From NCBI RefSeq assembly GCF_002886045.1, contig NZ_CP025791.1:4975001-5039000 (forward strand): a DNA stretch of 64,000 nt, in the 5' to 3' direction. The notes under the pieces were generated by a model. It was not told the DNA's origin and did not search any database. It worked only from the letters and a program-made list of their open reading frames with translations. Positions 22,380-35,656 of the stretch are shown one piece after another. Both the position numbers and the translations under genes were made by a program. The stretch's first letter is position 1. Every line of letters starts with the position of its first letter. Origin of the DNA: Flavivirga eckloniae (GTDB taxonomy: Bacteria > Bacteroidota > Bacteroidia > Flavobacteriales > Flavobacteriaceae).

Positions 22380-22449
22380 TTTTCTTTTTTCTATGCATGT
22401 TTTAGTATTGCTTAAAAAAAGAAACATGTAGTAAAAATGTCTTTATAAT

Positions 22450-22800
22450 ATGCATATAATTTATTGGATTTCAACCGTATTAATTTCTTGCTTTTTAGCA
22501 CTAAGTTCGTACACATACTTTTTTAGTAAAAGTACTATCGAAGGAGTTCGGGCATTAGGATTTCCCGATTTTTTCAGAATCGAACTTGCTGTTTTAAAGT
22601 TGGTGGCAATTTTTGTTATACTGGTACCTTCTGTTCCTAATAATGTAAAAGAATGGGGCTATGCCGGTATCGGTTTATTTTTAATTACCGCATTAATTGC
22701 TCATATAGCACATAAAGACAGTATTTTTATTTCACTTCTTTTAGTTGTATTAATGGCTTTGTTAATAATTTCGAGATATACCATGTTTGCGGTTCGCTAA
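22450..22800 (+). CDS. DoxX-like integral membrane protein
   Basis: 116 residues with four membrane helices (about 4-24, 46-64, 70-88 and 92-110). 'GVRALGFPDFFRIELAVLKL' and the following helix pattern fit the DoxX/DoxX-like family of small four-helix inner-membrane proteins. The role in this organism is unknown. It starts 70 bp after pyrF. Confidence 0.75.
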   Translation: MHIIYWISTVLISCFLALSSYTYFFSKSTIEGVRALGFPDFFRIELAVLKLVAIFVILVPSVPNNVKEWGYAGIGLFLITALIAHIAHKDSIFISLLLVVLMALLIISRYTMFAVR

Positions 22801-23136
22801 ACTATTTCGAATAACTGAGCTCATTACCATAGTTTAAACCTCTTTAAATCTTCGTTGTAACAGGGTGATTTCTAAATTTCAAATTTGCACATAAATAGTA
22901 GCTTTTTTGTGATTTAATTACCAGTTTGCATACACAACTAATTGTGCCAGAAATACGCCGTATTACTTTACTTGTCTTCTTTTAGGAAACCCTTGGGTAC
23001 AAACACGTGGTTGTGTATCAATAAATATCATAAATGACTCAAAATCGCAATACTTCAATAAACAATTTTCACTGAAAATGGGGTATTGTAGTTAATGCTT
23101 TAGGCCTATTTTTGACTTTAATTTTATGAAAACAAT
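22801..23136. other. 336-bp gap with long-loop inverted repeat
   Basis: No ORF is supported. ATACACAAC (22930-22938) and GTTGTGTAT (23010-23018) form a 9-bp inverted repeat around a 71-bp segment. The ends and wording ('GCCAGAAATACGCCGTATTA') look like a mobile or degraded element, not like a terminator. I could not match it to a known repeat class. Confidence 0.4.
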
Positions 23137-23772
23137 ATGGACAAGTTTATAAAGAGATTAATAAAAAGGGAAGAAGGCATTAGAGATTGGTTAAAGGAAA
23201 AAAAGATTGATTCATTATTAAAAAAAGTAGATCAAATACTTGATGATTTACCAAGAAAAGATATTAAAAAAGAATATCAAGATGCAATTAAAAAAGCATT
23301 GGAGTATTGTGTGGAAAACGAAGAAATAAAGGCTCTCGATTTTCAATGGTATTACGGAGGTAGTGAAATTGGAGGTGCCCTGGCTTATGGGTTAGATGGT
23401 TGTAAAACTAAAGGAAAGTTATCCAAAACCGATCTTGGTCCAAAAGAGTTGCCAGGCATTGAGTTAGATCTAGAACATGGAGATTTAATCGATGAGTATT
23501 TTGCAGAAATACCTGTTAATTATGCTATTAATGCCATGGTTGAAAAGATTAGCCCTGTTTTTGAACAAGAAGAATGGTTTGGAGACTTGCTAGGAGATGT
23601 CGAAAGCGTTATAACCGATTATTTTCAAATTTGGAACTATAAAGTTGGTTACGAAGCTTGCGAACAGTTAAGAGAAAGTAGTGTCGTAGTAAAATTAAAA
23701 AGTAGAGGACCGTTTTGGGTTACTATGACTAGACATGAAAGATGGTCTGTCGCTATTATGTTGATAAACTAG
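23137..23772 (+). CDS. hypothetical protein, 211 residues
   Basis: Soluble acidic protein. The N-terminus is a charged, helical, probably coiled region (about 1-65: 'KRLIKREEGIRDWLKEKKID', 'KVDQILDDLPRKDIKKEYQD'). A mixed domain follows with 'DFQWYYGGSEIGGALAYGLD', 'DEYFAEIPVNYAINAMVEKI' and 'FWVTMTRHERWSVAIMLIN'. No signal peptide and no family recognised. A 33-codon orphan coding fragment directly follows, suggesting this locus has been rearranged. Confidence 0.7.
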   Translation: MDKFIKRLIKREEGIRDWLKEKKIDSLLKKVDQILDDLPRKDIKKEYQDAIKKALEYCVENEEIKALDFQWYYGGSEIGGALAYGLDGCKTKGKLSKTDLGPKELPGIELDLEHGDLIDEYFAEIPVNYAINAMVEKISPVFEQEEWFGDLLGDVESVITDYFQIWNYKVGYEACEQLRESSVVVKLKSRGPFWVTMTRHERWSVAIMLIN

Positions 23773-23773
23773 T

Positions 23774-23872
23774 ATAGATTCTTTTAAAAACCTATCTAAA
23801 AAAGAAGAAGTAGAATTGATGCAGTCGGAACACGATGGAGGTGATGAGTTTGATGTCACTTTTAGTCAATAA
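23774..23872 (+). pseudogene. orphan C-terminal coding fragment
   Basis: An open frame with protein-like composition, IDSFKNLSKKEEVELMQSEH then DGGDEFDVTFSQ and TAA at 23870-23872. It begins right after the stop of the preceding gene in another frame and has no convincing start. It looks like the surviving tail of a deleted or truncated gene. Confidence 0.4.
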
Positions 23873-23985
23873 AATCTGTTTTAAAGAAGTTTGCGTATAT
23901 GAATTAACATATGTTAATTATGTGGGGATAATTGACTTGCTAACTTAAAAAGACAATTAACTAAAAGCGTTTAAACATTAACATC

Positions 23986-24402
23986 ATGAGACATTTTATT
24001 ATTTTATTACTAGCTTTATCTTCATTATCATTTGTAACCACAAAAAGTGAAGCACCCTTTATAGGAACATGGAAAGGAGAAGACAGGGGGGAAGTAGCAT
24101 ACATCACTTTTGACCATGAAGGTTACGCCATATTAAGAATAGGAGGAGAAGTTCTTGGAGGAAAAGATTTTGTTTATAAAGAGAAAAAAGCTGAATTAAA
24201 ATACAAAGTCATCCCAAACACAAAACCAATTCAACTAGACTTAATTATCTCTACAAATGAGCCTGTTAAGGAAAATAAAATGCTTTGCATTGCAGAATTT
24301 ATGTCTGACGATACCATGAAATTTGCATCTAATTTTGGTTTAAATTCCAGACCCACCGAATTCAATATCAAGAATTCAATAGTTTTACTTCGAGAGAAAT
24401 AA
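23986..24402 (+). CDS. secreted lipocalin-like hypothetical protein
   Basis: 138 residues with a signal peptide (MRHFIILLLALSSLSFVTTK). The mature part starts 'APFIGTWKGEDRGEVAYITF', the G-x-W pattern common at the start of lipocalin-like beta barrels, then 'YAILRIGGEVLGGKDFVY' and alternating strands. It probably sits in the periplasm. The function is unknown. It ends 186 bp before the seven-gene biosynthetic operon and is probably not part of it. Confidence 0.7.
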   Translation: MRHFIILLLALSSLSFVTTKSEAPFIGTWKGEDRGEVAYITFDHEGYAILRIGGEVLGGKDFVYKEKKAELKYKVIPNTKPIQLDLIISTNEPVKENKMLCIAEFMSDDTMKFASNFGLNSRPTEFNIKNSIVLLREK

Positions 24403-24463
24403 TCACTTGTCGTAATGCATAAAATCAGGGCAATTCAATAACTTCTCGAAAGTTGTTCTCCGT

Positions 24464-24494
24464 TTTGAAAAGGCGTTGAATTTTTATAAGTTTA
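24464..24494 (+). promoter_or_regulatory. candidate promoter of the seven-gene biosynthetic operon
   Basis: TTTG (24464-24467), 19-bp spacer, TAAGTTTA (24487-24494), one mismatch to the TAnnTTTG -7 consensus. It would give a leader of about 90 nt before the TTG start at 24589. Confidence 0.35.
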
Positions 24495-24588
24495 AAATAT
24501 AAGAATGACACAGGATATAATAGGCATTTTTGCACTATATTACTTTGAATGTCCTGACCTAATAGTAGGTCTGTAAACGATAATTTAT

Positions 24589-25677
24589 TTGAAAAACAAA
24601 AGCATACTTATATTAGGTGCCCGAGCTCCAATGACCCTTGTACTTGCCCGAAGTTTCAAAAAACATGGTATTCGGGTAATTTTAGCAGATTCTTTGGTTT
24701 TGCCCATAGGACGATGGACAAATGCGATAGCAAAATATAAACGATTGCCTTCAGCTCGATTTAACACACAAGCGTATATTGATGCTATTGCTCGATTAAT
24801 TTCAGAACATAACATTACCGATCTTATTCCTTGTTGTGAAGAAGCTTTTTATATAGCTAAATACAAACATAAACTAGCTTGTAAGGTTTGGACAGATGAT
24901 ATCCAAAGTTTAAATCTTTTACATAATAAAGAAACTTTTACAGAAGCTTTTAAAGATTTGCTATCTGTACCAAAAACAATATCGGCAGACAAATTCAAGG
25001 ATTGGGACGATAGCAATCATTATGTGTTCAAGCAAAAGTATTCAAGATTTGCCGGGAACATTTTTAATGGCGTTTTAATTACTAAAGATAGGCTTACCGA
25101 TCCAAAAAAATGGATTGCACAAAAAAAGATACATGGAAAGGAAGTTTGTGTGTATTCTATTTGGGATAAAGGACAAATAAGAGGTATAGTTTGTTACGAA
25201 CCAATTTATAGGGCAGGTAAAGGTGCTGGAATATTTTTTAAATGCATTGAAAACAAAACAGTAGAAGCACAAGTTCAAAAATTGGGAGAGCATTTAAATT
25301 ACACCGGGCAATTAAGCTTTGACGTTATAATAGACAAAGTTGGGGCGTGGTTTATAGAATGTAATCCTCGCGGTATCAGTGGAGCTCATTTGTTAGATAA
25401 TCAATTAGCGGCATGTTTTTTGGAAAACGGACTACAACCTCGTTTAGATAAACGAAACCATATGCTTTTAACTCTTATGCTATTAGGACACCCTTTTAAA
25501 CTTTTAAAAAAAGAAGTGAGGCAAGCCAAAGATGCCGTATTTCGTTTTTACGATCCGCTTCCAGCCATGCTACAGTGGCTGAGTTTAATCGAAATAGCAT
25601 ATATTAAACTATCGAAAGGAGTAAGCTGGTTACAAGCTACAACCTATGATATTGAATGGAACGGAGATGAAAGTTAG
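24589..25677 (+). CDS. ATP-grasp domain protein, first gene of the biosynthetic operon
   Basis: 362 residues from a TTG start; the first ATG (24630) would cut away the N-terminal 'SILILGARAPMTLVLARSF' nucleotide-binding-like fold, so TTG is preferred. The central ATP-grasp region includes 'HYVFKQKYSRFAGNIFNGV' (ATP-binding Lys), 'KKIHGKEVCVYSIWDKGQI' and the metal-binding 'GAWFIECNPRGISGAHLL'. ATP-grasp enzymes form amide, ester or thioester bonds via an acyl-phosphate, so it may join a carboxylate to an amine in this pathway. Its 3' end overlaps the next gene. Confidence 0.85.
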   Translation: MKNKSILILGARAPMTLVLARSFKKHGIRVILADSLVLPIGRWTNAIAKYKRLPSARFNTQAYIDAIARLISEHNITDLIPCCEEAFYIAKYKHKLACKVWTDDIQSLNLLHNKETFTEAFKDLLSVPKTISADKFKDWDDSNHYVFKQKYSRFAGNIFNGVLITKDRLTDPKKWIAQKKIHGKEVCVYSIWDKGQIRGIVCYEPIYRAGKGAGIFFKCIENKTVEAQVQKLGEHLNYTGQLSFDVIIDKVGAWFIECNPRGISGAHLLDNQLAACFLENGLQPRLDKRNHMLLTLMLLGHPFKLLKKEVRQAKDAVFRFYDPLPAMLQWLSLIEIAYIKLSKGVSWLQATTYDIEWNGDES

Positions 25678-26779
25678 ATGGGCTAAACAAGAAGAGCTAA
25701 CCGAAAAGGTTAGAGATTTCAGCAAGATGTTTCAAAGCGATTCGGAGCTGTTAATAGAAAATGTAAAAACGACATATCGAGTTTTGCGGGTAAATGACAA
25801 CTTATTTTTCCCGGTAACGATTAATGATGAAGAATGGGATAATTCGTTTGTTTGTTCTCCGTACACAGCTTATGCCAATTATTCCAAGGATGAAATAAAG
25901 TGGAAAATAAAAAACAGAATAGTAAAAAAACTATTGCTAATTCTGTTAAATGTTATAGCAAAATGGCTTAGAAAAGGAGCGCTCAATAAAAACATTCATG
26001 TTAATAATTTTTTGCTTTCAACCAATCCGTTTCCAGAATGGGACGGAAGGGAAATTGAAGCGATTACTGCATTTATAGTATCGGAATATCCAGAACATGC
26101 CATTATTTTCAGGTCACTCAATATATACCAACACAGCAAACTAATTGATGTGTTAAAAGCAAGTAGCTATGATGCTATTGGAAGTAGACAGGTGTATATA
26201 TTCGATCTTTCAAAAGAAGCCTGGTTAAAACATCGTAACAACAAGCACGACAATAGATTAATTAGGAAATCAGGACTTCGATTGATAGACCATGATAAAA
26301 TGAAAGAATACCTTCCGCAGGCATTGGAATTGTATCGAAAACTATATTTGGTAAAATATTCAAAATTCAATCCCCAGTTTACACTTAAATATATTCAAGA
26401 ATGTCACGAAAAAGAGTTGGTGAAATTTCAAGGTTATATAGATGAACACGATAGTTTAAAAGCCTTTTCGGGCGTGTTTACCATAGAAAATACCATAACG
26501 TCTCCATTAGTTGGGTACGATACCGATATGCCTCAAAAAGATGGACTTTACATTCATGCTGCACAATTAGCAATTCTTGAAAAATTCGAAACAGGACTGT
26601 TGCTTAATTTAAGTTCTGGAGCATCAGGATTTAAGCGTATGCGTGGCGGGCAGCCATCTATTGAATATTCTTTATTATATTTGAAACACTTACCACGTAA
26701 AAGACGCCTGCGTTGGCAAGCCCTAAAAGTTTTATCCAATAAAATAGGTGTACCTATTATTAAGAAATACAAACTCTAA
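25667..26779 (+). CDS. GNAT/FemAB-like acyltransferase, second gene of the operon
   Basis: 370 residues from ATG 25667; an in-frame ATG at 25646 would add seven residues. Either start overlaps the ATP-grasp gene. The C-terminal half has the look of the BioF2/FemAB-like double-GNAT fold: 'KHRNNKHDNRLIRKSGL' (compare the R/K-N-R-I-R-K pattern), 'LELYRKLYLVKYSKFN', 'LKAFSGVFTIENTITSPLVG' and 'LNLSSGASGFKRMRGGQPSI'. Such enzymes transfer acyl or aminoacyl groups to amines. It may act on the same intermediate as the ATP-grasp enzyme. Confidence 0.75.
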   Translation: MKVRWAKQEELTEKVRDFSKMFQSDSELLIENVKTTYRVLRVNDNLFFPVTINDEEWDNSFVCSPYTAYANYSKDEIKWKIKNRIVKKLLLILLNVIAKWLRKGALNKNIHVNNFLLSTNPFPEWDGREIEAITAFIVSEYPEHAIIFRSLNIYQHSKLIDVLKASSYDAIGSRQVYIFDLSKEAWLKHRNNKHDNRLIRKSGLRLIDHDKMKEYLPQALELYRKLYLVKYSKFNPQFTLKYIQECHEKELVKFQGYIDEHDSLKAFSGVFTIENTITSPLVGYDTDMPQKDGLYIHAAQLAILEKFETGLLLNLSSGASGFKRMRGGQPSIEYSLLYLKHLPRKRRLRWQALKVLSNKIGVPIIKKYKL

Positions 26780-26799
26780 CTCTCATTAGTAAAGCACAC

Positions 26800-27780
26800 A
26801 TGGATAATCAGAATAATTGGTACCCGATCTCACTTATCGGTAAATTAAAAAAATCACCTCAAAGGTTGATTTTGCAGGGGTGTCCAATTGTGGTGTATAA
26901 GGGGAAATCGGGCTGGGTTGTACAAAAAGATAGCTGCCCGCATAGAAATTATCCCTTATCTGCCGGAAAAGTAATTAACAATGAATTACGCTGTAAATAT
27001 CACGGTTGGCGTTTTGATGACAAAGGGTTTACTACAGAAATCCCCGGATTAAAATCACACTATAAAGGAAAATGTGCTGTACTTACCACTTATAGCTCGC
27101 ATGAACATAATGGATTGTTATGGGTATGTCTTAAACCCGGTACACCTTTTCAGCTTGCAGCAAAACCATTGCCCGATCGTAAAATTTATTCGTATCGAAC
27201 AACCATTAAAGGAGATACAGCCGATATTTTAGAGAATTTTTTAGATCCAATGCACACATCCTTTTTACACGATGGCCTTATTAGAAAGTCTACCAAAGTA
27301 AATAAAACCATTGCAGAAATAAGAGCAATTAAAAATGGTGTACAAGTAAAATATACCGAAGAGTCACACCAATCTGGTATAATAGGATCGGTTTTCGGTA
27401 GGTTTATAACGCATAGTTACGGTATTTTATCCAAAGGAAATATTATCGATTTGGAGTTTTATTCCAAAAAAGGATTAGAAATGACAAATCGATTTATAAT
27501 AGTACCAACTAAACCAGGAGAGAATTACTTTTTCTCGCAAATTACCGCTAATAATAGATGGGTGCCATCTTGGTTAAAAATAGGCATGTTGACTCCATTT
27601 TTTTATATGGCTTTGCAACAAGATAAAAAAGCTGTAGAGCTTTTAAGCGCTAACAAAAAACAAGTAGAACTCGACCCGCTTCAAAGTACATATTTGGATA
27701 TCATGCGACGGTATATAGACAGAATGTTAAACGGAGAAGCATTTAATGTAACAGAGAAAGATATCGAACTTTACTTATAA
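26800..27780 (+). CDS. Rieske non-heme iron oxygenase
   Basis: 326 residues. The N-terminal Rieske [2Fe-2S] site is complete: 'CPHRN' with C46 and H48, then 'CKYHGW' with C65 and H68. The catalytic domain carries the mononuclear iron motif 'ENFLDPMHTSFLHDG' with H152 and H157. Family members (VanA/KSH-like) hydroxylate or demethylate small organic substrates with O2 and need a reductase, which is not encoded here. It starts 20 bp after the acyltransferase gene and supplies an oxidative tailoring step. Confidence 0.9.
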   Translation: MDNQNNWYPISLIGKLKKSPQRLILQGCPIVVYKGKSGWVVQKDSCPHRNYPLSAGKVINNELRCKYHGWRFDDKGFTTEIPGLKSHYKGKCAVLTTYSSHEHNGLLWVCLKPGTPFQLAAKPLPDRKIYSYRTTIKGDTADILENFLDPMHTSFLHDGLIRKSTKVNKTIAEIRAIKNGVQVKYTEESHQSGIIGSVFGRFITHSYGILSKGNIIDLEFYSKKGLEMTNRFIIVPTKPGENYFFSQITANNRWVPSWLKIGMLTPFFYMALQQDKKAVELLSANKKQVELDPLQSTYLDIMRRYIDRMLNGEAFNVTEKDIELYL

Positions 27781-27788
27781 TTAAACAA

Positions 27789-28778
27789 ATGAAAGTACTA
27801 CTTACAGGAGCAACAGGGTTTTTAGGATGGCGAACATTAGAAGTTCTCGCAGACGATCCGCGTATAAGTACAATAGTTGCAACCGGTAGAACTCTAAAGA
27901 ACACACACCAAGTAAAGCACGAAAAAGTAACCTATATTTTAGGAGATTTAGAGAATATATCCTTTGTAAAAGAACTAGTAAAAGACGTAGATTATATTAT
28001 ACATGCAGCAGCATTGTCCTCACCTTGGGGTAAAAGGGAGTGGTTTGAAAAAGCCAATATACAGACCCAACAAAACCTAATAAAAGTAGCCCAAGAAAAC
28101 AAGATTAAAAATTTTGTGTTCATTTCTACCCCCAGTATTTATTTTGAATTTAAGGATAAGTTCAATGTAAAAGAAGATGATACATTGCCAAAAACACTAA
28201 TTAATGCATATGCCGAAACAAAAAGAAAGGCAGAAATAGTTTTGGCTAACTCTGGATTAACACATGTTATACTAAGACCCAGAGCTATTATAGGTCGTGG
28301 AGATACGGTTATAATGCCTCGATTAATCCGGGCGTTTGATGAAGGGCGTTTAAAAATTATTGGAAACGGAAAGAATATTGCCGATCTCACCTCGGTAGAA
28401 AATGTAGCAAACGCCATACTGTTAGCCCTAGTGGCAAAAGATAAAGCCCTTAATGAAACCTATAATATAACAAATGACGAACCAGTTGTCCTATGGGATG
28501 CCATTACAAATGTTTTAACCCAATTAGGCAAAAAGGCTCCAGAAAAAAAACTCCCATATAAACTGGTTAAAACCATAGCAACATTGCTCGAATTAAAGGC
28601 TAGTCTAACTAATAAGAAAGAACCGCCTTTAACAAAGTATGGCGTTGGCACATTGGCAAAATCGCTTACTATGGACATTTCTAAGGCAAAACAATTATTG
28701 GGTTATAATCCTAAAGTGACAACGCAAGAGGCTATAAACGAATTTGTAAATTGGTATCGATCAAATGGAAAGCAGTAA
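27789..28778 (+). CDS. NAD(P)-dependent epimerase/dehydratase or 3-beta-HSD-like SDR
   Basis: 329 residues of the extended short-chain dehydrogenase type. NAD(P)-binding GATGFLG is at 7-13. Catalytic Tyr141 and Lys145 are in 'YAETKRKAE', with the Ser/Thr of 'FISTPSIYF' nearby. 'VILRPRAIIGRGDTVIMPRL' and 'TSVENVANAILLAL' match 3-beta-hydroxysteroid dehydrogenase/OleD-like members. It is 8 bp after the Rieske gene and overlaps the next gene by 14 bp. With the ketosynthase-like last gene it could reduce a beta-keto product, as OleD does in olefin synthesis (inference). Confidence 0.88.
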   Translation: MKVLLTGATGFLGWRTLEVLADDPRISTIVATGRTLKNTHQVKHEKVTYILGDLENISFVKELVKDVDYIIHAAALSSPWGKREWFEKANIQTQQNLIKVAQENKIKNFVFISTPSIYFEFKDKFNVKEDDTLPKTLINAYAETKRKAEIVLANSGLTHVILRPRAIIGRGDTVIMPRLIRAFDEGRLKIIGNGKNIADLTSVENVANAILLALVAKDKALNETYNITNDEPVVLWDAITNVLTQLGKKAPEKKLPYKLVKTIATLLELKASLTNKKEPPLTKYGVGTLAKSLTMDISKAKQLLGYNPKVTTQEAINEFVNWYRSNGKQ

Positions 28779-29610
28779 ACTCTATTTAGGTTATGCCGGA
28801 CATTGTTTGGCAAAAGAAAACGAAGCCATTCGAGGAGGGAGGAAACAGCTTATCGAATTTAAAGCACTTTGGGGGTTAATCGAACATCCAACCCAAGGCT
28901 TAATGCTTTTCGATACCGGGTATACCAAGCGGTTTTATAAAGCAACGTCATCTTTTCCCAATAAAATATATGCAAAAATCACGAAGGTGACCATAACTCC
29001 AGAAAGTGAGGTGAAAGCACAATTAATTGCTCATGGCATCCAGCCCGAAGCGATCAAGCATATTTTTATTTCGCACTTTCATGCCGATCATATTGCAGGG
29101 TTGCGGGACTTTCCGAATGCCACACTTCACGCTTCAAAGGACGCGTTAAAACAATTAAACAGCATTCCAAAAGCTTTGGGCTTTACCAAAGGCATACTAA
29201 AAGAACTACTTCCCGAGAATTACATGGAAAGAATCTCGGTGATTGAAACTAGTGTGAAAAGAAACATATCTGCATTGGGCGAGGTTTACGATTTATTTGG
29301 AGATGGCCATATAATAGCTGTTCCTTTGCCCGGTCATGCAGCAGGCCAAATGGGGTTACTGATTTCAACAAAAAAACAAACTTATTTTTTGGTAGCCGAT
29401 GCTTGTTGGTTAAAAGAAACCTATAAAAAAGGAACACTGCCACATCCTATAGTTCGTATATTTTTCCATTCATGGAAAGACTTTAAAAATAGCCTGACAC
29501 GCTTAAGAGCATATCACAAGGAAAACCCCGAAACCATTATTGTGCCGACTCATTGCTCTGAAACTACAGACGCTTTGGTGCATAAAAAAATAGACTTGGA
29601 TGTACTTTAA
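28765..29610 (+). CDS. MBL-fold metallo-hydrolase
   Basis: 281 residues. The zinc site HFHADH is at 104-109 within 'HIFISHFHADHIAGLRDFPN'. Further metal ligands are in 'PLPGHAAGQMGLLIS', 'FLVADACWL' and 'VPTHCSE'. It resembles lactonase and thioesterase-like MBL proteins ('QGLMLFDTGYTKRFY'). It overlaps both neighbours (14 bp and 11 bp). Hydrolysis of a thioester or lactone intermediate is a reasonable guess, not shown. Confidence 0.88.
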   Translation: MESSKLYLGYAGHCLAKENEAIRGGRKQLIEFKALWGLIEHPTQGLMLFDTGYTKRFYKATSSFPNKIYAKITKVTITPESEVKAQLIAHGIQPEAIKHIFISHFHADHIAGLRDFPNATLHASKDALKQLNSIPKALGFTKGILKELLPENYMERISVIETSVKRNISALGEVYDLFGDGHIIAVPLPGHAAGQMGLLISTKKQTYFLVADACWLKETYKKGTLPHPIVRIFFHSWKDFKNSLTRLRAYHKENPETIIVPTHCSETTDALVHKKIDLDVL

Positions 29611-30883
29611 AATTCAAATACTGTTCAATCTATTGTCACTTCGTATAAACAAGAGGCGCTATAAAAACAAGCTAAATCGGCTACAGGATAAGCGGTGGAA
29701 AAAATTAAATAAAACCTTATTAAAGTCGCCTTATTATTGGGAGAAAGCAAAAGAGCATATGTCTTTAGAAAAGTATCCGATAATTAATAAAGCCATTTTT
29801 ATGGCAAACTTCGATAAAATCAATACTAAGGGAGTATCACTCGAGCAGGCTTTTAAAGTAGCTGTTAAAGCAGAAGAGTCGCGAGATTTTTCACCTTTAA
29901 TAGATGGTGTAACCGTAGGCTTATCAACAGGAACAAGTGGCAATAGGGGTGTGTTTTTAGCAACAGAGGCAGAAAGGGCAAAATGGGTAGCTTGTGTATT
30001 AGATCGTGTTATTGGCTTTTCCTTAAAAAAACGTAGTGTCGCTTTCTTTTTAAGAGCGAATAGTAATCTTTATGATTCTGTAACATCAAAATCCCTAAAA
30101 TTTGAGTTTTTCGATATTCTTGAAAGTATTAAGACCTATATCCCTAAACTAAACAAGTTGCAGCCTACAATTTTAGTAGCCCAACCTAGCGTTTTATTGG
30201 AATTGGCTGCTTGTGTAGAAACAGGAGAGCTATTAATAAAACCGACCAAAATAATTTCGGTGGCAGAAGTGCTGTATCATGAAGATGCCACTTTTCTGGA
30301 ACAAGTTTTTAAGCAAACCATTCATCAAGTATACCAATGTACAGAAGGGATGTTGGCAACGACTTGCGGACACGGAACATTACATTTTAATGACGATTTT
30401 TTAATCATTGAGAAAAAATATCTCGATAAGGAGAAAACACGTTTTCATCCCATTATCACAGATTTATTAAGAACAACACAGCCTATAGTAAGATACGAGT
30501 TAAACGATATTATTCATGAAAAAACGAACTGTGCATGTGGAAGTCATTTTACAGCCATAGAGAAGATTGAAGGCAGGTCGGATGATGTGCTTAGGTTTAC
30601 ATCCCTAAAAGGAAAGGACATAAAAGTATATCCCGATTTTTTAAGGCGAGCAATTATATTGGCCGATCCGTCAATTAATGATTATACGCTGGTACAAAAG
30701 AATGAAAATACATTGGAATTATATGTAAGTAATACTAATGTATATGAATTGGCGGCTAAAGCTCTGAAAGATTATTTAGAGACCTTAGGAGTAAAAGATA
30801 TTATAATAAAGAAGTCCCTTGTAAGGAATCATGTCAAAGGGAATAAATTAAGAAGAATACGGAATGATTGGAAAATCAATTAA
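29600..30883 (+). CDS. adenylate-forming enzyme (F390 synthetase/PaaK-like)
   Basis: 427 residues. The ATP-binding P-loop of the ANL superfamily is 'VGLSTGTSGNRGVFL' at about 106-120. 'IYQCTEG'-type region appears as 'VYQCTEGMLATTCGHGTLHF', and 'EKIEGRSDDVLRF' is the hinge. Cysteines in 'TTCG' and 'CACGSHF' resemble the zinc site of PaaK/F390-synthetase relatives. It should activate a carboxylate as an acyl-adenylate. It overlaps the MBL gene by 11 bp and the ketosynthase gene by 20 bp. This is a separate subfamily from classical acyl-CoA ligases; the substrate is unknown. Confidence 0.85.
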   Translation: MYFKIQILFNLLSLRINKRRYKNKLNRLQDKRWKKLNKTLLKSPYYWEKAKEHMSLEKYPIINKAIFMANFDKINTKGVSLEQAFKVAVKAEESRDFSPLIDGVTVGLSTGTSGNRGVFLATEAERAKWVACVLDRVIGFSLKKRSVAFFLRANSNLYDSVTSKSLKFEFFDILESIKTYIPKLNKLQPTILVAQPSVLLELAACVETGELLIKPTKIISVAEVLYHEDATFLEQVFKQTIHQVYQCTEGMLATTCGHGTLHFNDDFLIIEKKYLDKEKTRFHPIITDLLRTTQPIVRYELNDIIHEKTNCACGSHFTAIEKIEGRSDDVLRFTSLKGKDIKVYPDFLRRAIILADPSINDYTLVQKNENTLELYVSNTNVYELAAKALKDYLETLGVKDIIIKKSLVRNHVKGNKLRRIRNDWKIN

Positions 30884-31853
30884 AATAGAAGGAACAGGAA
30901 TTTATTTGCCAGAAGCAAAATCCTCTGAAGCTATCGAAAAAATGCATGGTATTCCACTGGGCTGGAGTGAGAAATATTCTGGAGTAAAAAACAGGCATCA
31001 TGTAACGCATGAAACTAATGGCTTTATGGGGGCCAGAGCAGCCGAACAGGCTTTGCAAAATACAGGTTTGACCTTGGAAGCTATTGATATGCTTATTTTT
31101 GCTGGTAGTTCATATGATTATCCTTTACCCAATCAAGCGAGCATCATCAAGCATGAATTAAAAGGAGCTTCGTTCGATTTTCCGGCTATTGATGTCGATA
31201 GTACTTGTTTAAGTTTTGTAACCGGTTTGGAAATGGCAGCGAGTATGTTAGATGGGGAAAACTATAAATGCATACTGCTTGTGTCTTCCGAAGTCGCATC
31301 AAGAGGGTTAGACCCATCAAATTGGGAAACAGCTACGTTGTTTGGTGATGGTGCAGCTGCAGCTATAATAACTCACGACCCTTCTGGAGAGTCAGTGGTG
31401 GTTAAAAGTCAACAGAAAACATATACAGAAGGGGTGTATCATGCCATAATTGAAGGTGGAGGAGCTGTTGATTATTTTAATGATGATACTATTAATCCTA
31501 AAGGACGTTTTTTTAAAATGCAGGGAAAAAAGCTATTGCGCTTGGCAAAGAAAAAAATTCCGGTTTTTGTAAAAGATTTTTTTAAAGACCTCCCAATTAA
31601 AATTGAAGATATAGACTTAATTATACCGCATCAAGCCTCATCAACAGGGCTTGAGATTTTTAAAAATATGTATGCTTTTAATGAATCCCAAGTTATAGAT
31701 ACTTTAGCTGAGAATGGTAACTGTATTGCAGCATCAATTCCATTAACCTTGCACGATGCTATCACCAAGAAAAAATTGAAAAGAGGACAAACCTGTTTGC
31801 TTATAGGTACGTCGGCAGGCTTTTCAATAGGAGCATTATTGTTTCAATATTAG
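30864..31853 (+). CDS. 3-oxoacyl-ACP synthase III-like (FabH/OleA-type) ketosynthase
   Basis: 329 residues of the thiolase fold. The catalytic triad is visible: Cys115 in 'DVDSTCLSFVTGLEMA', His256 in 'LIIPHQASSTG' and Asn286 in 'NGNCIAASIPLTLHDA'. 'ATLFGDGAAAAIIT' is also conserved. FabH starts fatty-acid synthesis; OleA joins two acyl chains head to head. Its place as last gene of a non-fatty-acid operon argues against housekeeping FabH. It starts 20 bp inside the preceding gene, so the operon is translationally coupled. Confidence 0.9.
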   Translation: MIGKSIKIEGTGIYLPEAKSSEAIEKMHGIPLGWSEKYSGVKNRHHVTHETNGFMGARAAEQALQNTGLTLEAIDMLIFAGSSYDYPLPNQASIIKHELKGASFDFPAIDVDSTCLSFVTGLEMAASMLDGENYKCILLVSSEVASRGLDPSNWETATLFGDGAAAAIITHDPSGESVVVKSQQKTYTEGVYHAIIEGGGAVDYFNDDTINPKGRFFKMQGKKLLRLAKKKIPVFVKDFFKDLPIKIEDIDLIIPHQASSTGLEIFKNMYAFNESQVIDTLAENGNCIAASIPLTLHDAITKKKLKRGQTCLLIGTSAGFSIGALLFQY

Positions 31854-32187
31854 TTTTATTAGTGAAACTCTATTTTAAAAAGTTGCGAAGCAAAGCATTC
31901 AAAATAGTAAGTAGAACTAATCCCGCTTCTTGTGCTGAACTCGTTTCAGTATCCAGTGGGATCTTAGGTTTAATACCTCGAAGCTAGCTTCAGAATTTAT
32001 AAATAATATTTTCAATTGAATGCCTCGTGCGCTTGCTCCGAAGGTCATTAACTTCTTCTAGCAATTAATTATTTTAAAAAGGGAAGCACATTGTTTGTAA
32101 TAACCTACTTTATACTTTTTATAGGCTATTAGATAACTACTTTTTTACTAATTTTAATTTTCGAATACATTAGAAAATAGATAAAGA
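31854..32187. repeat. 334-bp gap with two dispersed-repeat fragments
   Basis: Holds no gene. One repeat-like phrase at about 31930-31968 ('TGTGCTGAACTCGTTTCAG' bounded by ATCCC and GGGAT) and another at about 32021-32050 ('CTCGTGCGCTTGCTCCGAAG'). No clear U-run terminator for the biosynthetic operon was found; the ATCCC/GGGAT hairpin may serve. Confidence 0.55.
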
Positions 32188-32688
32188 ATGAGTAAAGAAA
32201 CGCCTTTGGTAAACTCAGAGTATTTGCTGCAAAAATTCCCTGGAAAGGGTGGTTGGACTTACGCGGCGATACCAGAAGTACTTCAAAATAAAAATAACCC
32301 ATTTGGTTGGGTAAAAGTAAAAGGTTTTATTGATGACTTTGAATTGAAGCAATATAAATTAATGCCCATGGGTAATGGCAAATTGTTTTTACCTGTTAAA
32401 GCTGAAATTCGAAAAAAGATTAAAAAGAACCATGGCGATTATGTCAATGTCATTCTTTATTCTGATGATTCGCTACTTGAAATTCCGCAAGAAATTTTAG
32501 ACTGTTTTGCAAACGAACCTAAAAAGACACATGAGACGTTCCTGAATTTTACAGAAGGCGAGCAAAAAGCATATTTAGATTGGATTTATGGGGCTAAAAC
32601 AGATGAAACCAAAGCGAACAGAATTTTAAAAATGATGAATAGACTGGAGAGGAAATTAAAATTTCATGATAAGGAAGATAGAGAATAG
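32188..32688 (+). CDS. DUF1905/YdeI (OmpD-associated)-type protein
   Basis: 166 residues. The N-terminal part is the DUF1905 beta-barrel ('KGGWTYAAIPEVLQNKNN', 'GWVKVKGFIDDFELKQYKLM', 'LFLPVKAEIRKKIKKNHGDY'). The C-terminal part has the YdeI/OmdA helical motif 'NFTEGEQKAYLDWIYGAKTD' followed by 'KANRILKMMNRLERK'. The biochemical role of this family is unknown; related YdeI proteins have been linked to bacteriocin protection. It appears to be a single-gene unit. Confidence 0.82.
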   Translation: MSKETPLVNSEYLLQKFPGKGGWTYAAIPEVLQNKNNPFGWVKVKGFIDDFELKQYKLMPMGNGKLFLPVKAEIRKKIKKNHGDYVNVILYSDDSLLEIPQEILDCFANEPKKTHETFLNFTEGEQKAYLDWIYGAKTDETKANRILKMMNRLERKLKFHDKEDRE

Positions 32689-33008
32689 TAAGGACTAATT
32701 CATGTCTTAACGAAAATGCAAAACCTTATAGCAGATATAAAGCGAACTATAGAGATTATCAAATAAACAAACCGGCATAAGAACATTACCTGTAATTCAA
32801 GAATAAGTATGGACGTATAGAGCCTCGTGTACCATAGTATATGATGGTCTCTTACCTCAATATTACTCTTGGACATTTAAGTAAAATCAGAAACAAATTG
32901 TCCAGAAAATAATTTCTTAATCTAGATTAAGAAATTTGTTTTAAAAAGCTTTGACTTTTGTATCATGAAAATCAAGAAGAACGTTTTGGAATTAATAAAT
33001 AAACCCAT
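32689..33008. promoter_or_regulatory. 320-bp gap holding a 26-bp perfect palindrome with nested arms
   Basis: Positions 32911-32936 are a perfect palindrome with half-site AATTTCTTAATCT. A further inverted repeat encloses it: AAACAAATT (32891-32899) with AATTTGTTT (32933-32941). It lies about 70 bp before the GNAT gene start. It may be an operator for a dimeric regulator or a terminator-like hairpin of the preceding gene (followed by TTGTTTT). No ORF seen in the gap. Confidence 0.5.
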
Positions 33009-33728
33009 ATGAAAGAGGAAATAGCCAATAATATGTTTGAATTATACGAGCTTATAGGTGCAAGTAATCAATCCTTAAAGACCTCGAAAGGGTGTAGCTA
33101 TGTTATGTCGGCTAACAATTCCTGGCCTACTAAAGTTTTTAGACTAAACGAATTACAAATAGATTACGGGGATTTGTATCAAAAAATGGAATTTGGAGAA
33201 ATTCCTGATTCAGTTTTTCTGAATGAAGATGAGGTGGCTGAATCGCAGCTTGTAAAGCATGGATTTAAAATGAAATCTACAATTTTGAGCATGTATGCAA
33301 ACTTATCTGAACAAACAAAATCCGCAAATAGTTTTACTTCTATTGATAGGGTTGATACAGAAAAAGCAGCAGCAATATTTGCAAAAATAGCTTCGGTGGC
33401 TTTTAGTTACGAAGTCCGTCCTGAAACTATAGCCTCTTTAATAAACAATCCCAAGTTAAAAATATATATAGGGAAGTACAAAGAAACTTATGCGAGTAGC
33501 GGGATGCTGTTATTAGATAGAAACGGAATTTCTGGTTTGCATATGATAGGGACTCTTCCCGAATATAGAGGGTATGGTTTAGGGAAAGTTATGACAGGTA
33601 AATTGCTGTTTGAAGCTTACGAAAACTCAAGTAAACAGGCGGTACTGGGAGCTTCGGAATTGGGACATCGGGTTTACTCCAAACTAGGGTTTAAAGTTGA
33701 AGGGACATTAAAATCGTACTCGATATAG
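33009..33728 (+). CDS. GNAT-family N-acetyltransferase
   Basis: 239 residues. The C-terminal half (about 110-239) has the GNAT acetyl-CoA site 'GLHMIGTLPEYRGYGLGKVM' with the RGYGLG pyrophosphate loop, preceded by 'YASSGMLLLDRNGI' and followed by 'LGASELGHRVYSKLGFKVEG'. The N-terminal half is a separate alpha-beta region of unknown role. The acceptor substrate is unknown. It precedes the alkylation-repair group by 98 bp. Confidence 0.85.
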   Translation: MKEEIANNMFELYELIGASNQSLKTSKGCSYVMSANNSWPTKVFRLNELQIDYGDLYQKMEFGEIPDSVFLNEDEVAESQLVKHGFKMKSTILSMYANLSEQTKSANSFTSIDRVDTEKAAAIFAKIASVAFSYEVRPETIASLINNPKLKIYIGKYKETYASSGMLLLDRNGISGLHMIGTLPEYRGYGLGKVMTGKLLFEAYENSSKQAVLGASELGHRVYSKLGFKVEGTLKSYSI

Positions 33729-33826
33729 AAGTGCTTTTTCTTTTCTGTTATCAATAAATACATCTAGCAAGTTTCGGGTTTTAAGGCAACGGTATAGTTT
33801 CGATATTTGTAATATATAATTCAGAC

Positions 33827-34684
33827 ATGATGAACGAACAACAAAAATTGAATTACGACCGTATTGCAGAAGCCATAGCCTATATAAGGAATAACTTTAA
33901 GGAACAACCCAATCTTGATGAGGTAGCCTCTAAGGTACATTTGAGTTCTTTTCATTTTCAACGTTTATTTAATGAATGGGCAGGAACTACTCCCAAGAAG
34001 TTTTTGCAGTATATTAGTTTGGAGTATGCCAAAAAGCTTTTAAAAGAACAACAAGCCACTTTATTTGATGCTGCAATTGAAACAGGATTGTCTGGAACAG
34101 GTAGACTACATGATCTTTTTATTAATGTGGAAGGCATGACACCAGCCGAATATAAAAACGGCGGTAAAAATCTTTTTATAAATTACAGTTTTGCAGAGAG
34201 CCCTTTTGGGAGTTTAATGGTAGCTAGCACTCAAAAAGGAATTTGTCATATGGCTTTTATTGCAGAAGAAGCTAGTGCATTGAGCGACTTGAAAACAAAA
34301 TTTCCGAATGCAACATTTCAACAAAAACTGGATTTGATGCAACAGCATGCATTGTTTATTTTTCAAAATGATTGGAGTAAATTAGCAGAAATCAAATTGC
34401 ACTTAAAAGGCACAAGTTTTCAATTAAAAGTATGGGAAACATTGCTAAAAATTCCAATGGGAGGCCTCACGACTTATGGTGGTATTGCAGAACAAATAGG
34501 AAATAAAAATGCTTCCAGAGCTGTAGGTACAGCCATAGGGAACAATCCTGTAGCATTTCTTATTCCGTGCCACCGTGTTATTCAATCTACAGGAGGTATA
34601 GGCGGGTATATGTGGGGAGAAACAAGAAAAACAGCTATTATTGGTTGGGAAGGTGCAAAAATAGATAGCGTTAAAATAGAATAA
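33827..34684 (+). CDS. AraC-type regulator fused to methylated-DNA-protein cysteine methyltransferase
   Basis: 285 residues. The N-terminal AraC/HTH_18 domain (about 8-108) has two helix-turn-helix units ('LDEVASKVHLSSFHFQRLF', 'FDAAIETGLSGTGRLHDLF'). The C-terminal Ogt/MGMT domain has the methyl-acceptor motif IPCHRV, Cys248, with 'GGLTTYGGIAEQIGNKNASR' as the DNA-binding helix. It repairs O6-methylguanine and may regulate adaptive-response genes. It lacks the N-terminal metal-binding domain of E. coli Ada, which here is encoded separately 44 bp downstream. Confidence 0.93.
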   Translation: MMNEQQKLNYDRIAEAIAYIRNNFKEQPNLDEVASKVHLSSFHFQRLFNEWAGTTPKKFLQYISLEYAKKLLKEQQATLFDAAIETGLSGTGRLHDLFINVEGMTPAEYKNGGKNLFINYSFAESPFGSLMVASTQKGICHMAFIAEEASALSDLKTKFPNATFQQKLDLMQQHALFIFQNDWSKLAEIKLHLKGTSFQLKVWETLLKIPMGGLTTYGGIAEQIGNKNASRAVGTAIGNNPVAFLIPCHRVIQSTGGIGGYMWGETRKTAIIGWEGAKIDSVKIE

Positions 34685-34727
34685 GCTGCTTATTTATGTA
34701 TATTTTGATGCTTTGAGTTGCGAGAAT

Positions 34728-34973
34728 ATGGTACGACATAACGATATCTCAGATATAGATTTAAGACGTAGAATTAAACGTCGTAAAATTCAGCTTGGTG
34801 GGAATCGCAATTTAAAAATTTACGGAACCCTGTCCTGTTCATCAGGAAAAAGAATGAAAACCGAGAATCGTGTTTTCTTTAGCTCGGAAAAAGAAGCTGT
34901 AAAACATGGCTATCGTCCTTGTGGACATTGTATGCGATTGCAATATAAAAATTGGAAACATGGAATTGTTTGA
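34728..34973 (+). CDS. stand-alone Ada metal-binding-domain protein
   Basis: 81 residues from ATG 34728; an upstream TTG at 34713 is in frame but less likely. The segment 'NRNLKIYGTLSCSSGKRMK', 'ENRVFF' and 'GYRPCGHCMR' matches the Ada zinc-binding domain. Only three cysteines are present (C37, C65, C68). The position of the E. coli methyl-accepting Cys38 has none, so it may bind DNA or metal without accepting methyl groups. The N-terminus is strongly basic (RRRIKRRK). It overlaps the AlkB-like gene by 14 bp. Confidence 0.8.
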   Translation: MVRHNDISDIDLRRRIKRRKIQLGGNRNLKIYGTLSCSSGKRMKTENRVFFSSEKEAVKHGYRPCGHCMRLQYKNWKHGIV

Positions 34974-35568
34974 TGAATTGGTGGATAAAACTAGAAATTG
35001 GCTACCCAAAGACGGGGAGGTAAACTATTATGGCAAAATTTTTTCAATGGAAGAAGCAGATCATTATTTCAATACCCTGCTCAATACGATTGCGTGGCGA
35101 AATGATGAAGCCATTATTTTTGGAAAAAAAATTATAACCAAAAGAAAAGTAGCTTGGTATGGCGATAAACCTTATGAATACACGTACTCGAACACGACAA
35201 AACATGCTTTAAATTGGACAGCAGCATTGTTGGAGTTAAAAGCTATAATAGAAAAGGAAACGGGGGAGACATTTAATTCCTGCTTGCTCAATCTTTATCA
35301 CAGTGGAGAAGAAGGAATGGCTTGGCATAGTGATGGTGAAACCGATTTAAAAAAAGATGGCGCCATAGGGTCGTTGAGTTTTGGAGCAGAAAGAAAGTTT
35401 TCGTTTAAGCATAAACAAACTAATGAGAAAGTTGAACTGGTTTTAAAACACGGAAGCCTTTTGGTTATGAAAGATATTACGCAAACGCACTGGTTGCATA
35501 GGCTTCCTCCAACAAAACGTATTACGGCACCACGAGTAAATCTTACATTTAGGACTATGGTTGAGTAA
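34960..35568 (+). CDS. AlkB-like Fe(II)/2-oxoglutarate-dependent DNA repair dioxygenase
   Basis: 202 residues from ATG 34960, overlapping the Ada-domain gene by 14 bp. The iron ligands are His123 and Asp125 in 'GMAWHSDGE' and His180 in 'THWLHR'; 2-oxoglutarate-binding Arg residues lie in 'APRVNLTFR'. 'RKVAWYGDKPYEYTYSN' and 'NSCLLNLYHSGEEG' are typical of AlkB/ALKBH2-like enzymes, which oxidatively remove methyl groups from DNA bases such as 1-methyladenine. Its place beside the MGMT and Ada-domain genes supports an adaptive response unit. Confidence 0.93.
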   Translation: MELFDELVDKTRNWLPKDGEVNYYGKIFSMEEADHYFNTLLNTIAWRNDEAIIFGKKIITKRKVAWYGDKPYEYTYSNTTKHALNWTAALLELKAIIEKETGETFNSCLLNLYHSGEEGMAWHSDGETDLKKDGAIGSLSFGAERKFSFKHKQTNEKVELVLKHGSLLVMKDITQTHWLHRLPPTKRITAPRVNLTFRTMVE

Positions 35569-35656
35569 GTACGCTGCCAATTAATATGGTATCTTGCGGA
35601 TTGAAAAAAACAAAATTCCATTTTAGTATTGATACCAAACCACCGATGTACATAGA

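What the first reader, a model, noticed from the sequence alone, without database searches (positions are those of the whole stretch)
24589..31853. Seven-gene coupled operon for an unknown small molecule
Seven plus-strand genes are packed with gaps of 20 bp or less and four overlaps: ATP-grasp, GNAT/FemAB-like, Rieske oxygenase, SDR, MBL hydrolase, adenylate-forming enzyme and FabH/OleA-like ketosynthase. All active-site motifs I checked are intact (Cys115-His256-Asn286; Rieske C46/H48/C65/H68; HFHADH; Tyr141-Lys145). Ketosynthase, SDR and an adenylate-forming enzyme recall oleA-oleD-oleC, but OleB is absent and the ligase is of the F390/PaaK kind. The extra amide-forming and oxidative enzymes suggest an N-acylated, hydroxylated lipid or a beta-lactone-like product. 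I know of no named product for this set.
Basis: partly seen in the sequence, partly recalled or inferred. Interest (0 to 1): 0.85.

Follow-up and report, generated by a model that had tools for sequence, protein, structure and literature searches.

The report
Mobile conserved lipid-like biosynthesis gene cluster
Seven tightly packed genes in a marine flavobacterium form one version of an unstudied, exchangeable pathway, probably for an unusual lipid, whose four core genes also occur together in distant bacteria, including many E. coli.

Summary
The seven genes are real, overlapping, intact and under purifying selection. They are not a local oddity. Four of them (ketosynthase, SDR, metallo-hydrolase, F390/PaaK-like ligase) lie together in 27 of 33 ligase loci examined, from Bacteroidota, Bacillota, Fusobacteriota, Pseudomonadota and Saccharibacteria. 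All seven recur in Rhizobium and Shinella. A seven-gene E. coli version with the same core is in 671 of 5426 complete E. coli genomes. In the window's genus the cluster fills a variable site (2 of 12 genomes). The ketosynthase is neither housekeeping FabH nor OleA. It groups with MxnB/CorB, enzymes that fuse two acyl chains, and the OleA/PpyS glutamate is absent in 27 of 27. In two Saccharibacteria genomes, near-identical here, the core runs on into ACP, acetyl-CoA carboxylase, FabD, FabF and a glycosyltransferase; no other ACP, FabF or acyltransferase hit and no FabA/FabZ hit was found there. Best reading: the core builds a beta-oxo/beta-hydroxy long-chain, perhaps chain-fused, acid, finished by exchangeable genes (here ATP-grasp, GNAT, Rieske). 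Ole/beta-lactone is not supported. Product and chain fusion are inferred. My ten paper searches showed no description of it.

The parts
24589..25677 (+). ATP-grasp ligase (PRK06849-like); proposed amide- or ester-forming head-group step
   Evidence: PF02655 30 bits over cut-off 23.2; NF005315 289 bits, under cut-off 406; in 11 of 27 core loci
25646..26779 (+). GNAT-like (Acetyltransf_6) protein; partner of the ATP-grasp
   Evidence: no Pfam hit itself; PF13480 in 4 of 13 relatives, best 2.6e-5; in 12 of 27 core loci; an ATP-grasp and GNAT pair without core genes on two Deinococcus plasmids
26800..27780 (+). Rieske non-haem iron oxygenase; proposed oxidative tailoring
   Evidence: PF00355 56 bits; C46/H48/C65/H68 in 8 of 8, N146-D149-H152-H157 in 7 of 8
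27789..28778 (+). SDR (epimerase/3beta-HSD/OleD-like), core gene
   Evidence: OleD model 180 bits, under cut-off 580; S113, Y141, K145 in 27 of 27
28765..29610 (+). metallo-hydrolase of the AHL-lactonase branch of the MBL fold, core gene
   Evidence: seven metal-ligand residues invariant in 18 of 18; family profile: top 18 hits at 73-94 bits, mostly named lactonases, PqsE 28
29600..30883 (+). F390/PaaK-type adenylate-forming enzyme (TIGR02304), core gene
   Evidence: 450 bits over cut-off 251.9; S109, G111, S113, E249, D303, R326, K416 invariant in 18 of 18
30864..31853 (+). KAS III ketosynthase of the MxnB/CorB branch, core gene
   Evidence: best solved relatives 4v2p (203 bits) and CorB 4yuc (201), FabH at most 133; 100/100 tree branch with MxnB/CorB against FabH rows; C115/H256/N286 in 27 of 27

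Best explanation
A horizontally exchanged, modular lipid-type biosynthetic cluster. Core module, proposed: the MxnB/CorB-branch ketosynthase condenses an ACP-bound beta-ketoacyl or acyl chain with a second acyl chain; the OleD-like SDR reduces the keto group to a hydroxyl; the lactonase-like metallo-hydrolase opens a lactone or thioester and frees the acid; the F390/PaaK-like ligase adenylates that carboxylate for transfer. Exchangeable module, here: ATP-grasp and GNAT put an amino-acid or other amide head group on it and the Rieske enzyme hydroxylates the chain. Elsewhere the neighbours are glycosyltransferases, a sulfotransferase, a DUF3419 (BtaA-like) enzyme, or a fatty-acid hydroxylase with a desaturase and a PAP2 phosphatase. 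Shown: gene content, intact motifs, co-conservation, KS clade, variable insertion site. Inferred: substrates, order of steps, chain fusion, head group and product class.
For: 27 of 33 ligase loci hold all four core genes together in one (rotated) order. Distances of the four families correlate at 0.86-0.93, none of 2000 permutations reaching any of the six values. KS with MxnB/CorB: 100/100 branch of length 1.16 against FabH rows; profile 331 and 322 bits against 266 for the best FabH, 172 PqsD, 128 OleA. Lipid-type neighbours: FA_hydroxylase (nearest OlsE, 67 bits, under its cut-off of 475), FA_desaturase and PAP2 in E. coli, FA_hydroxylase in Burkholderia stagnalis; GT21 in Fusobacterium and GT4 in Saccharibacteria; sulfotransferase beside three Rhodobacterales loci; DUF3419 in L074 and annotated in L077. 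Saccharibacteria: GT4-SDR-MBL-F390-KS-ACP-BCCP-AccC-AccAD-FabD-FabF-BirA-AMP ligase-GT2 in one run, with the only ACP, FabF-type and acyltransferase hits of two genomes and no FabA/FabZ hit. That set can make beta-ketoacyl-ACP but not run the usual elongation cycle.
Against: I found no enzyme assay, metabolite or structure for this set. PMC4578411 places MxnB/CorB themselves inside the FabH clade, and my tree held no OleA, PqsD or PpyS rows; the cluster KSs as one group have only 81/88, and two rows have long branches. Shared descent does not prove shared chemistry. PaaK-type ligases often take aromatic acids (recalled). Accessory genes are neighbours only, each kind in one or a few lineages. 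The Saccharibacteria genomes are draft MAGs of untold completeness, so the lack of FabZ may be a gap; one FabG-like SDR lies elsewhere in each. Ligase loci without the core exist: L010, L062-L064, L068, L094 and the weaker hit L051. The rank correlations of the family distances are lower, 0.44-0.72.
Confidence: 0.5

Rival explanations
1. Ordinary one-chain route: the KS extends one acyl chain with malonyl-ACP, the SDR makes a beta-hydroxyacyl thioester, and GNAT/ATP-grasp put it on an amino acid, giving an ornithine-lipid-like N-acyl amino acid.
For: KS belongs to the FabH superfamily with the C-H-N triad, and MxnB/CorB were placed inside the FabH clade in print; the Saccharibacteria run makes malonyl-CoA and malonyl-ACP; the E. 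coli hydroxylase is nearest OlsE; GNAT beside the core in 12 of 27.
Against: The KS branch with MxnB/CorB is apart from the FabH rows with 100/100; the place that is Phe in three of the four FabH sequences looked at is I or L in 27 of 27; no GNAT seen in the fetched stretch of 15 of 27 core loci; a PaaK-type ligase and a lactonase are not needed for it.
Confidence: 0.27
2. Signal or antibiotic of the PQS kind: the PaaK-like ligase activates an aryl acid, the KAS III (PqsD-like) condenses it, the MBL acts as a PqsE-like thioesterase and the Rieske enzyme hydroxylates.
For: Same enzyme classes as PqsA/PqsD/PqsE/PqsH (recalled); PqsD 172 bits and PqsE 28 bits in the profile searches.
Against: KS is nearer MxnB/CorB and FabH than PqsD; MBL nearer lactonases (73-94 bits) than PqsE; lipid-type neighbours; fatty-acid genes beside the core in Saccharibacteria.
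Confidence: 0.1
3. Alpha-pyrone or other lactone as final product, as with MxnB/CorB.
For: KS clade; lactonase-like enzyme in the core.
Against: The SDR would remove a keto group that pyrone formation needs and a lactonase would open a ring (inference); no PKS genes are among the seven.
Confidence: 0.08
4. Ole-type pathway to a beta-lactone or olefin.
For: SDR nearest OleD (180 bits); KS, SDR and an adenylate-forming enzyme together.
Against: OleA/PpyS catalytic Glu absent in 27 of 27 (its role from PMC4578411); no OleB-like hydrolase among the seven; ligase has only a sub-threshold PF00501 hit; OleA ranks below PqsD in similarity.
Confidence: 0.05

Closest known systems
MxnB and CorB, chain-interconnecting ketosynthases of myxopyronin and corallopyronin
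   Same: Nearest solved relatives of the KS; same C-H-N triad; no OleA/PpyS glutamate (V in MxnB/CorB, I/L here)
   Different: Those serve PKS lines; here no PKS, but an SDR, a lactonase-like enzyme and a PaaK-like ligase
TIGR02304, NCBI 'F390 synthetase-related protein'
   Same: Window ligase scores over the family cut-off
   Different: A family name that tells no function; the cluster around it did not appear in my paper searches
OleABCD long-chain olefin/beta-lactone pathway
   Same: KAS III, OleD-like SDR and an adenylate-forming enzyme together
   Different: No OleB-like gene, no OleA glutamate, ligase of another subfamily, added lactonase-like enzyme
PqsA-D-E alkylquinolone pathway
   Same: Ligase, KAS III, MBL hydrolase and an oxygenase as classes
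   Different: KS and MBL are nearer other families; SDR, ATP-grasp and GNAT are extra
Ornithine lipid genes (OlsB, OlsE)
   Same: A GNAT-like protein and, in E. coli, an OlsE-like hydroxylase
   Different: The window GNAT matches no NCBIfam model; a KS core is added

Membership tests
TIGR02304 F390 synthetase-related | score over curated cut-off 251.9 | tested here: met
   450.4 bits
MxnB/CorB-type chain-fusing KS | common branch apart from FabH | tested here: met
   100/100, length 1.16; 25 rows, only four of them outside references, none OleA, PqsD or PpyS
MxnB/CorB-type chain-fusing KS | C-H-N triad and no Glu base | tested here: met
   C115/H256/N286 in 27 of 27, I/L at place 88 in 27 of 27
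MxnB/CorB-type chain-fusing KS | condenses two acyl chains | not testable with these tools
   needs an assay
Housekeeping FabH | score over TIGR00747 cut-off 292.1 | tested here: not met
   200.4 bits; two other copies in the genome score 372 and 349
OleABCD | OleA catalytic Glu | tested here: not met
   I/L in 27 of 27
OleABCD | OleB alpha/beta hydrolase in the operon | tested here: not met
   none among the seven genes; not checked at the other loci
OleABCD | OleD over its cut-off | tested here: not met
   179.6 against 580
AHL lactonase (AttM/AiiA/GcL) | binuclear metal ligands | tested here: met
   H104 H106 D108 H109 H191 D212 H263 in 18 of 18
AHL lactonase (AttM/AiiA/GcL) | AttM model cut-off 390 | tested here: not met
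   86.2 bits
PQS pathway | MBL and KS nearest PqsE and PqsD | tested here: not met
Rieske oxygenase | CxH...CxxH and mononuclear iron motif | tested here: met
   8 of 8 and 7 of 8
GNAT acyltransferase | GNAT domain match | tested here: inconclusive
   PF13480 in 4 of 13 relatives, not in the window protein; fold prediction unusable, pLDDT 34

The most novel reading that the evidence does not exclude
A so far undescribed class of two-chain lipids, mycolate-like alpha-branched beta-hydroxy acids with exchangeable head groups, made by a small fatty-acid-linked chain-fusing pathway that moves between phyla and is carried by gut Saccharibacteria, by many E. coli and by marine flavobacteria.
Probability: 0.3. 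Interest if true: 0.87.

Novelty: new variant of a known kind. Interest (0 to 1): 0.73.

Why it matters
The same uncharacterised core is in about one in eight complete E. coli genomes (671 of 5426), among them a Nissle derivative and ATCC 25922, and in small Saccharibacteria genomes where it sits with the only ACP, FabF-type and acyltransferase hits. Gene removal and lipidomics in laboratory strains could therefore reveal a widespread unknown bacterial product, and would give TIGR02304 a function.

Tried and rejected
Housekeeping FabH, Ole/beta-lactone and PQS readings were tested and are not met. A fold model of the GNAT was useless (pLDDT 34); no fold search was run and the second fold job was not used. 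A PDB profile search for the GNAT gave no hit better than E 0.025, which I take as chance. Promoter and terminator scans were no better than shuffles.

Paper searches, all ten: (0 papers; 0; 2; 10; 5; 0; 0; 24, of which 10 listed; 0), 109 (2). No title or abstract start in these listings names this cluster. Of the ten papers I read passages of three.

Dropped before the count of 33: L055 (same locus as L012), L014 (near-identical to L013), L065 and L066 (E. coli again), L045/L015 (the window), L016, L017 and L046-L050 (short copies of loci fetched longer), L092 (same locus as L013), L093 (short copy of L094), L052-L054 (short copies of L062-L064), L051 (ligase hit at 7e-24, 27% identity) and L018-L044, which are under the family cut-off. 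In L051 and L018-L044 saw no core gene, but those stretches are only 2.8-4.2 kb. With L051 the count would be 27 of 34. The 27 are not independent: L059-L061 are one genus, and several Rhizobium/Shinella loci are close kin. Of 64 plasmid records with a ligase hit I fetched 20. Of the other 44, six are same-genus or same-species records of hits I fetched (H37-H40, H42, H54), 34 are lower-ranked, mostly PaaK-like hits and four were not listed. The genome-contig scan gave three relatives, so breadth rests on plasmid records, E. coli, 395 Bacteroidota genomes (7 with a ligase at 1e-20) and 286 genomes of the Saccharibacteria's phylum (2, one of them the starting genome).
Full report
Observation. 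The seven ORFs are as described. Spacings are -32, +20, +8, -14, -11 and -20, and the same in Flavivirga algicola L012 except for one (-11 for -14), where the seven proteins are 80-85% identical with dN/dS 0.06-0.11. dS is 1.05-1.5, so the ratios are rough. The window lies in a single-contig 5.67 Mb genome. Motifs: KS C115/H256/N286 and SDR Y141/K145 are invariant in 27 of 27; Rieske cluster ligands in 8 of 8 and the mononuclear iron motif in 7 of 8, the eighth being one piece of a gene split in two ORFs; MBL metal ligands in 18 of 18; ligase S109, G111, S113, E249, D303, R326 and K416 in 18 of 18.

Site. In the same genus the ligase is over its family cut-off in the window genome and in G011 but in none of the other ten genomes, so 2 of 12 hold the cluster. 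G011 and L012 are the same genome (same contig place). In four of the ten without it (L085-L088) pyrF is followed directly by the homologue of window gene 35657. In five more other genes lie between the two, and in one (L089) the order differs (ORFs of 80 aa or more). The cluster is thus a gain at a variable site.

Distribution. I collected loci by the ligase: 32 plus one; the rows left out are named under Tried and rejected. All four core genes lie together in 27 of 33. The exceptions are L010 (dispersed), L062-L064 (a second paralogue in one genus), L068 (ligase and ATP-grasp only) and L094 (ligase alone). The order is SDR-MBL-F390-KS or KS-(ATP-grasp)-SDR-MBL-F390, one a rotation of the other. 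Hosts: Bacteroidota, Pontibacillus and Paenibacillus, Fusobacterium, Saccharibacteria, alpha-, beta- and gammaproteobacteria. Deinobacterium chartae has a ligase over the cut-off, its neighbours unseen. The complete seven-gene set is intact in 6 of 27 (window, L012, L072, L073, L075, L078), in the last four with the ATP-grasp gene on the other strand; a seventh locus (L067) has a split Rieske gene. ATP-grasp is in 11 of 27, GNAT in 12, Rieske in 8, within the fetched stretches. Of 12 plasmid records with a GNAT homologue, ten also hold the ligase hit close by, and I fetched nine of these ten. The two Deinococcus records hold ATP-grasp and GNAT side by side with no core gene annotated as such around them, so that pair is probably a module of its own; L081 has SDR-type genes a few kb away.

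E. coli. 671 of 5426 complete genomes hold at least 80% of the E. coli version KS-SDR-MBL-F390-PAP2-FA hydroxylase-FA desaturase. In the two chromosomes I read it lies between narI and tRNA-Tyr/purU. A Nissle derivative, ATCC 25922 and ST131 strains are in the listing.

Co-inheritance. Distance matrices of the four core families over 27 loci correlate at 0.86-0.93 (Pearson) and none of 2000 permutations reached any of the six values. Rank correlations are lower, 0.44-0.72, and common descent of the hosts contributes.

Ketosynthase. The best solved relatives are 4v2p and CorB 4yuc, at 203 and 201 bits, then FabH (133 and less), PqsD (78) and OleA (58). With a family profile the numbers are 331, 322, 266, 172 and 128. 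That 4v2p is MxnB, 3row OleA, 3h76 PqsD and 2ebd a FabH is recalled or taken from molecule names. A tree of 18 cluster KSs, three KAS III of the same genome and four references puts cluster KSs plus MxnB/CorB on a 100/100 branch of length 1.16; the cluster KSs as one group have 81/88, two rows have long branches and three an odd make-up. The tree holds no OleA, PqsD or PpyS row. PMC4578411 (parts 1 and 2 of 3 read) says that OleA and PpyS use a partner-subunit Glu that is V94 in MxnB/CorB, and that MxnB and CorB lie inside the FabH clade of its own tree. That place is L or I in 27 of 27 here. It is Phe in three of the four FabH sequences I looked at (two references and own copy 1) and not in own copy 2. 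That this Phe limits chain length in FabH is recalled. PMC4901931 (passages) describes the T-shaped cavity and the fusion of two ketoacyl chains by CorB/MxnB.

Other enzymes. The MBL profile's top 18 PDB hits, at 73-94 bits, are mostly named lactonases; the match to GcL runs over positions 15-277 of 280, other matches are partial, and PqsE scores 28. The ligase's nearest solved relatives are phenylacetate-CoA ligases at 44 and 31 bits. The SDR is nearest the OleD models and, among solved chains, a sterol-4-alpha-carboxylate 3-dehydrogenase at 69 bits.

Neighbours as clues. FA_hydroxylase (nearest OlsE, under its cut-off), FA_desaturase and PAP2 in E. coli; FA_hydroxylase in B. stagnalis; sulfotransferase next to Ketogulonicigenium and two Paracoccus loci (domain checked for the first); DUF3419 in L074 by domain and in L077 by annotation; GT21 in Fusobacterium, GT4 in Saccharibacteria, and MMPL exporter, cupin and acyltransferase in L056. 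That DUF3419 includes BtaA is recalled. Other neighbours gave no clue: two large genes at L058 and a 215-aa gene at L009 have no Pfam hit, nor has a 536-aa gene at L011, and the one at L059 is an amidase.

Saccharibacteria. L013 reads GT4, SDR, MBL, F390, KS, ACP (from 12080, with a DSL motif), BCCP, AccC, AccAD, FabD, FabF, BirA, AMP ligase, GT2. In its genome and in that of L014 there is one ACP, one FabF-type and one acyltransferase hit each, all in this run, no FabA/FabZ hit (the window's genome and 9 of 14 controls have one), and one FabG-like SDR elsewhere. The two genomes are near-identical here and count as one observation. Such a set can supply malonyl-ACP and beta-ketoacyl-ACP. This fits a core that consumes beta-ketoacyl-ACP; it also fits simple extension. 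The core is rare in that phylum: 2 of 286 genomes have a ligase hit, and the second one (L094) lacks the core.

Verdict. A real, conserved, mobile and modular biosynthetic cluster (near certain), most likely for a lipid-type product (about three in four, my estimate), with chain fusion as the favoured but unproven first step. PMC2649909 (passages) mentions an F390 synthetase-like ligase beside fatty-acid genes of Desulfotalea psychrophila (genus name recalled; the passage says D. psychrophila), a faint independent hint towards lipid chemistry. PMC5724707 was seen only in a search listing with the start of its abstract.

Noticed in passing
L013 6750-20730 (and L014): Saccharibacteria gene run joining the core to ACP, acetyl-CoA carboxylase, FabD, FabF, biotin ligase, AMP ligase and two glycosyltransferases, in genomes with no other ACP, FabF-type or acyltransferase hit.
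   Followed up: partly
L065, L066, L007: E. coli version of the core, between narI and tRNA-Tyr/purU in the two chromosomes read, in 671 of 5426 complete genomes, with PAP2, FA hydroxylase and FA desaturase.
   Followed up: partly
window 22380-35656; L082-L091: The stretch between pyrF and gene 35657 is a variable insertion site in the genus; other genes fill it in five of the ten relatives without the cluster.
   Followed up: yes
window 33827-35568: Ada-like and AlkB-like genes (named from their sequence, no family search run) downstream of the cluster; homologues fill the same site in L090.
   Followed up: partly
L067 13612-14632: Rieske gene of a Paraburkholderia plasmid is split into two overlapping ORFs.
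   Followed up: no
L062, L063, L064: A second, diverged F390-like ligase in one Bacteroidota genus with its own conserved neighbourhood and no core genes.
   Followed up: no
L080 7877-10125, L081 7862-10119: ATP-grasp and GNAT pair without the core on two Deinococcus plasmids; the ATP-grasp is annotated as hypothetical.
   Followed up: partly
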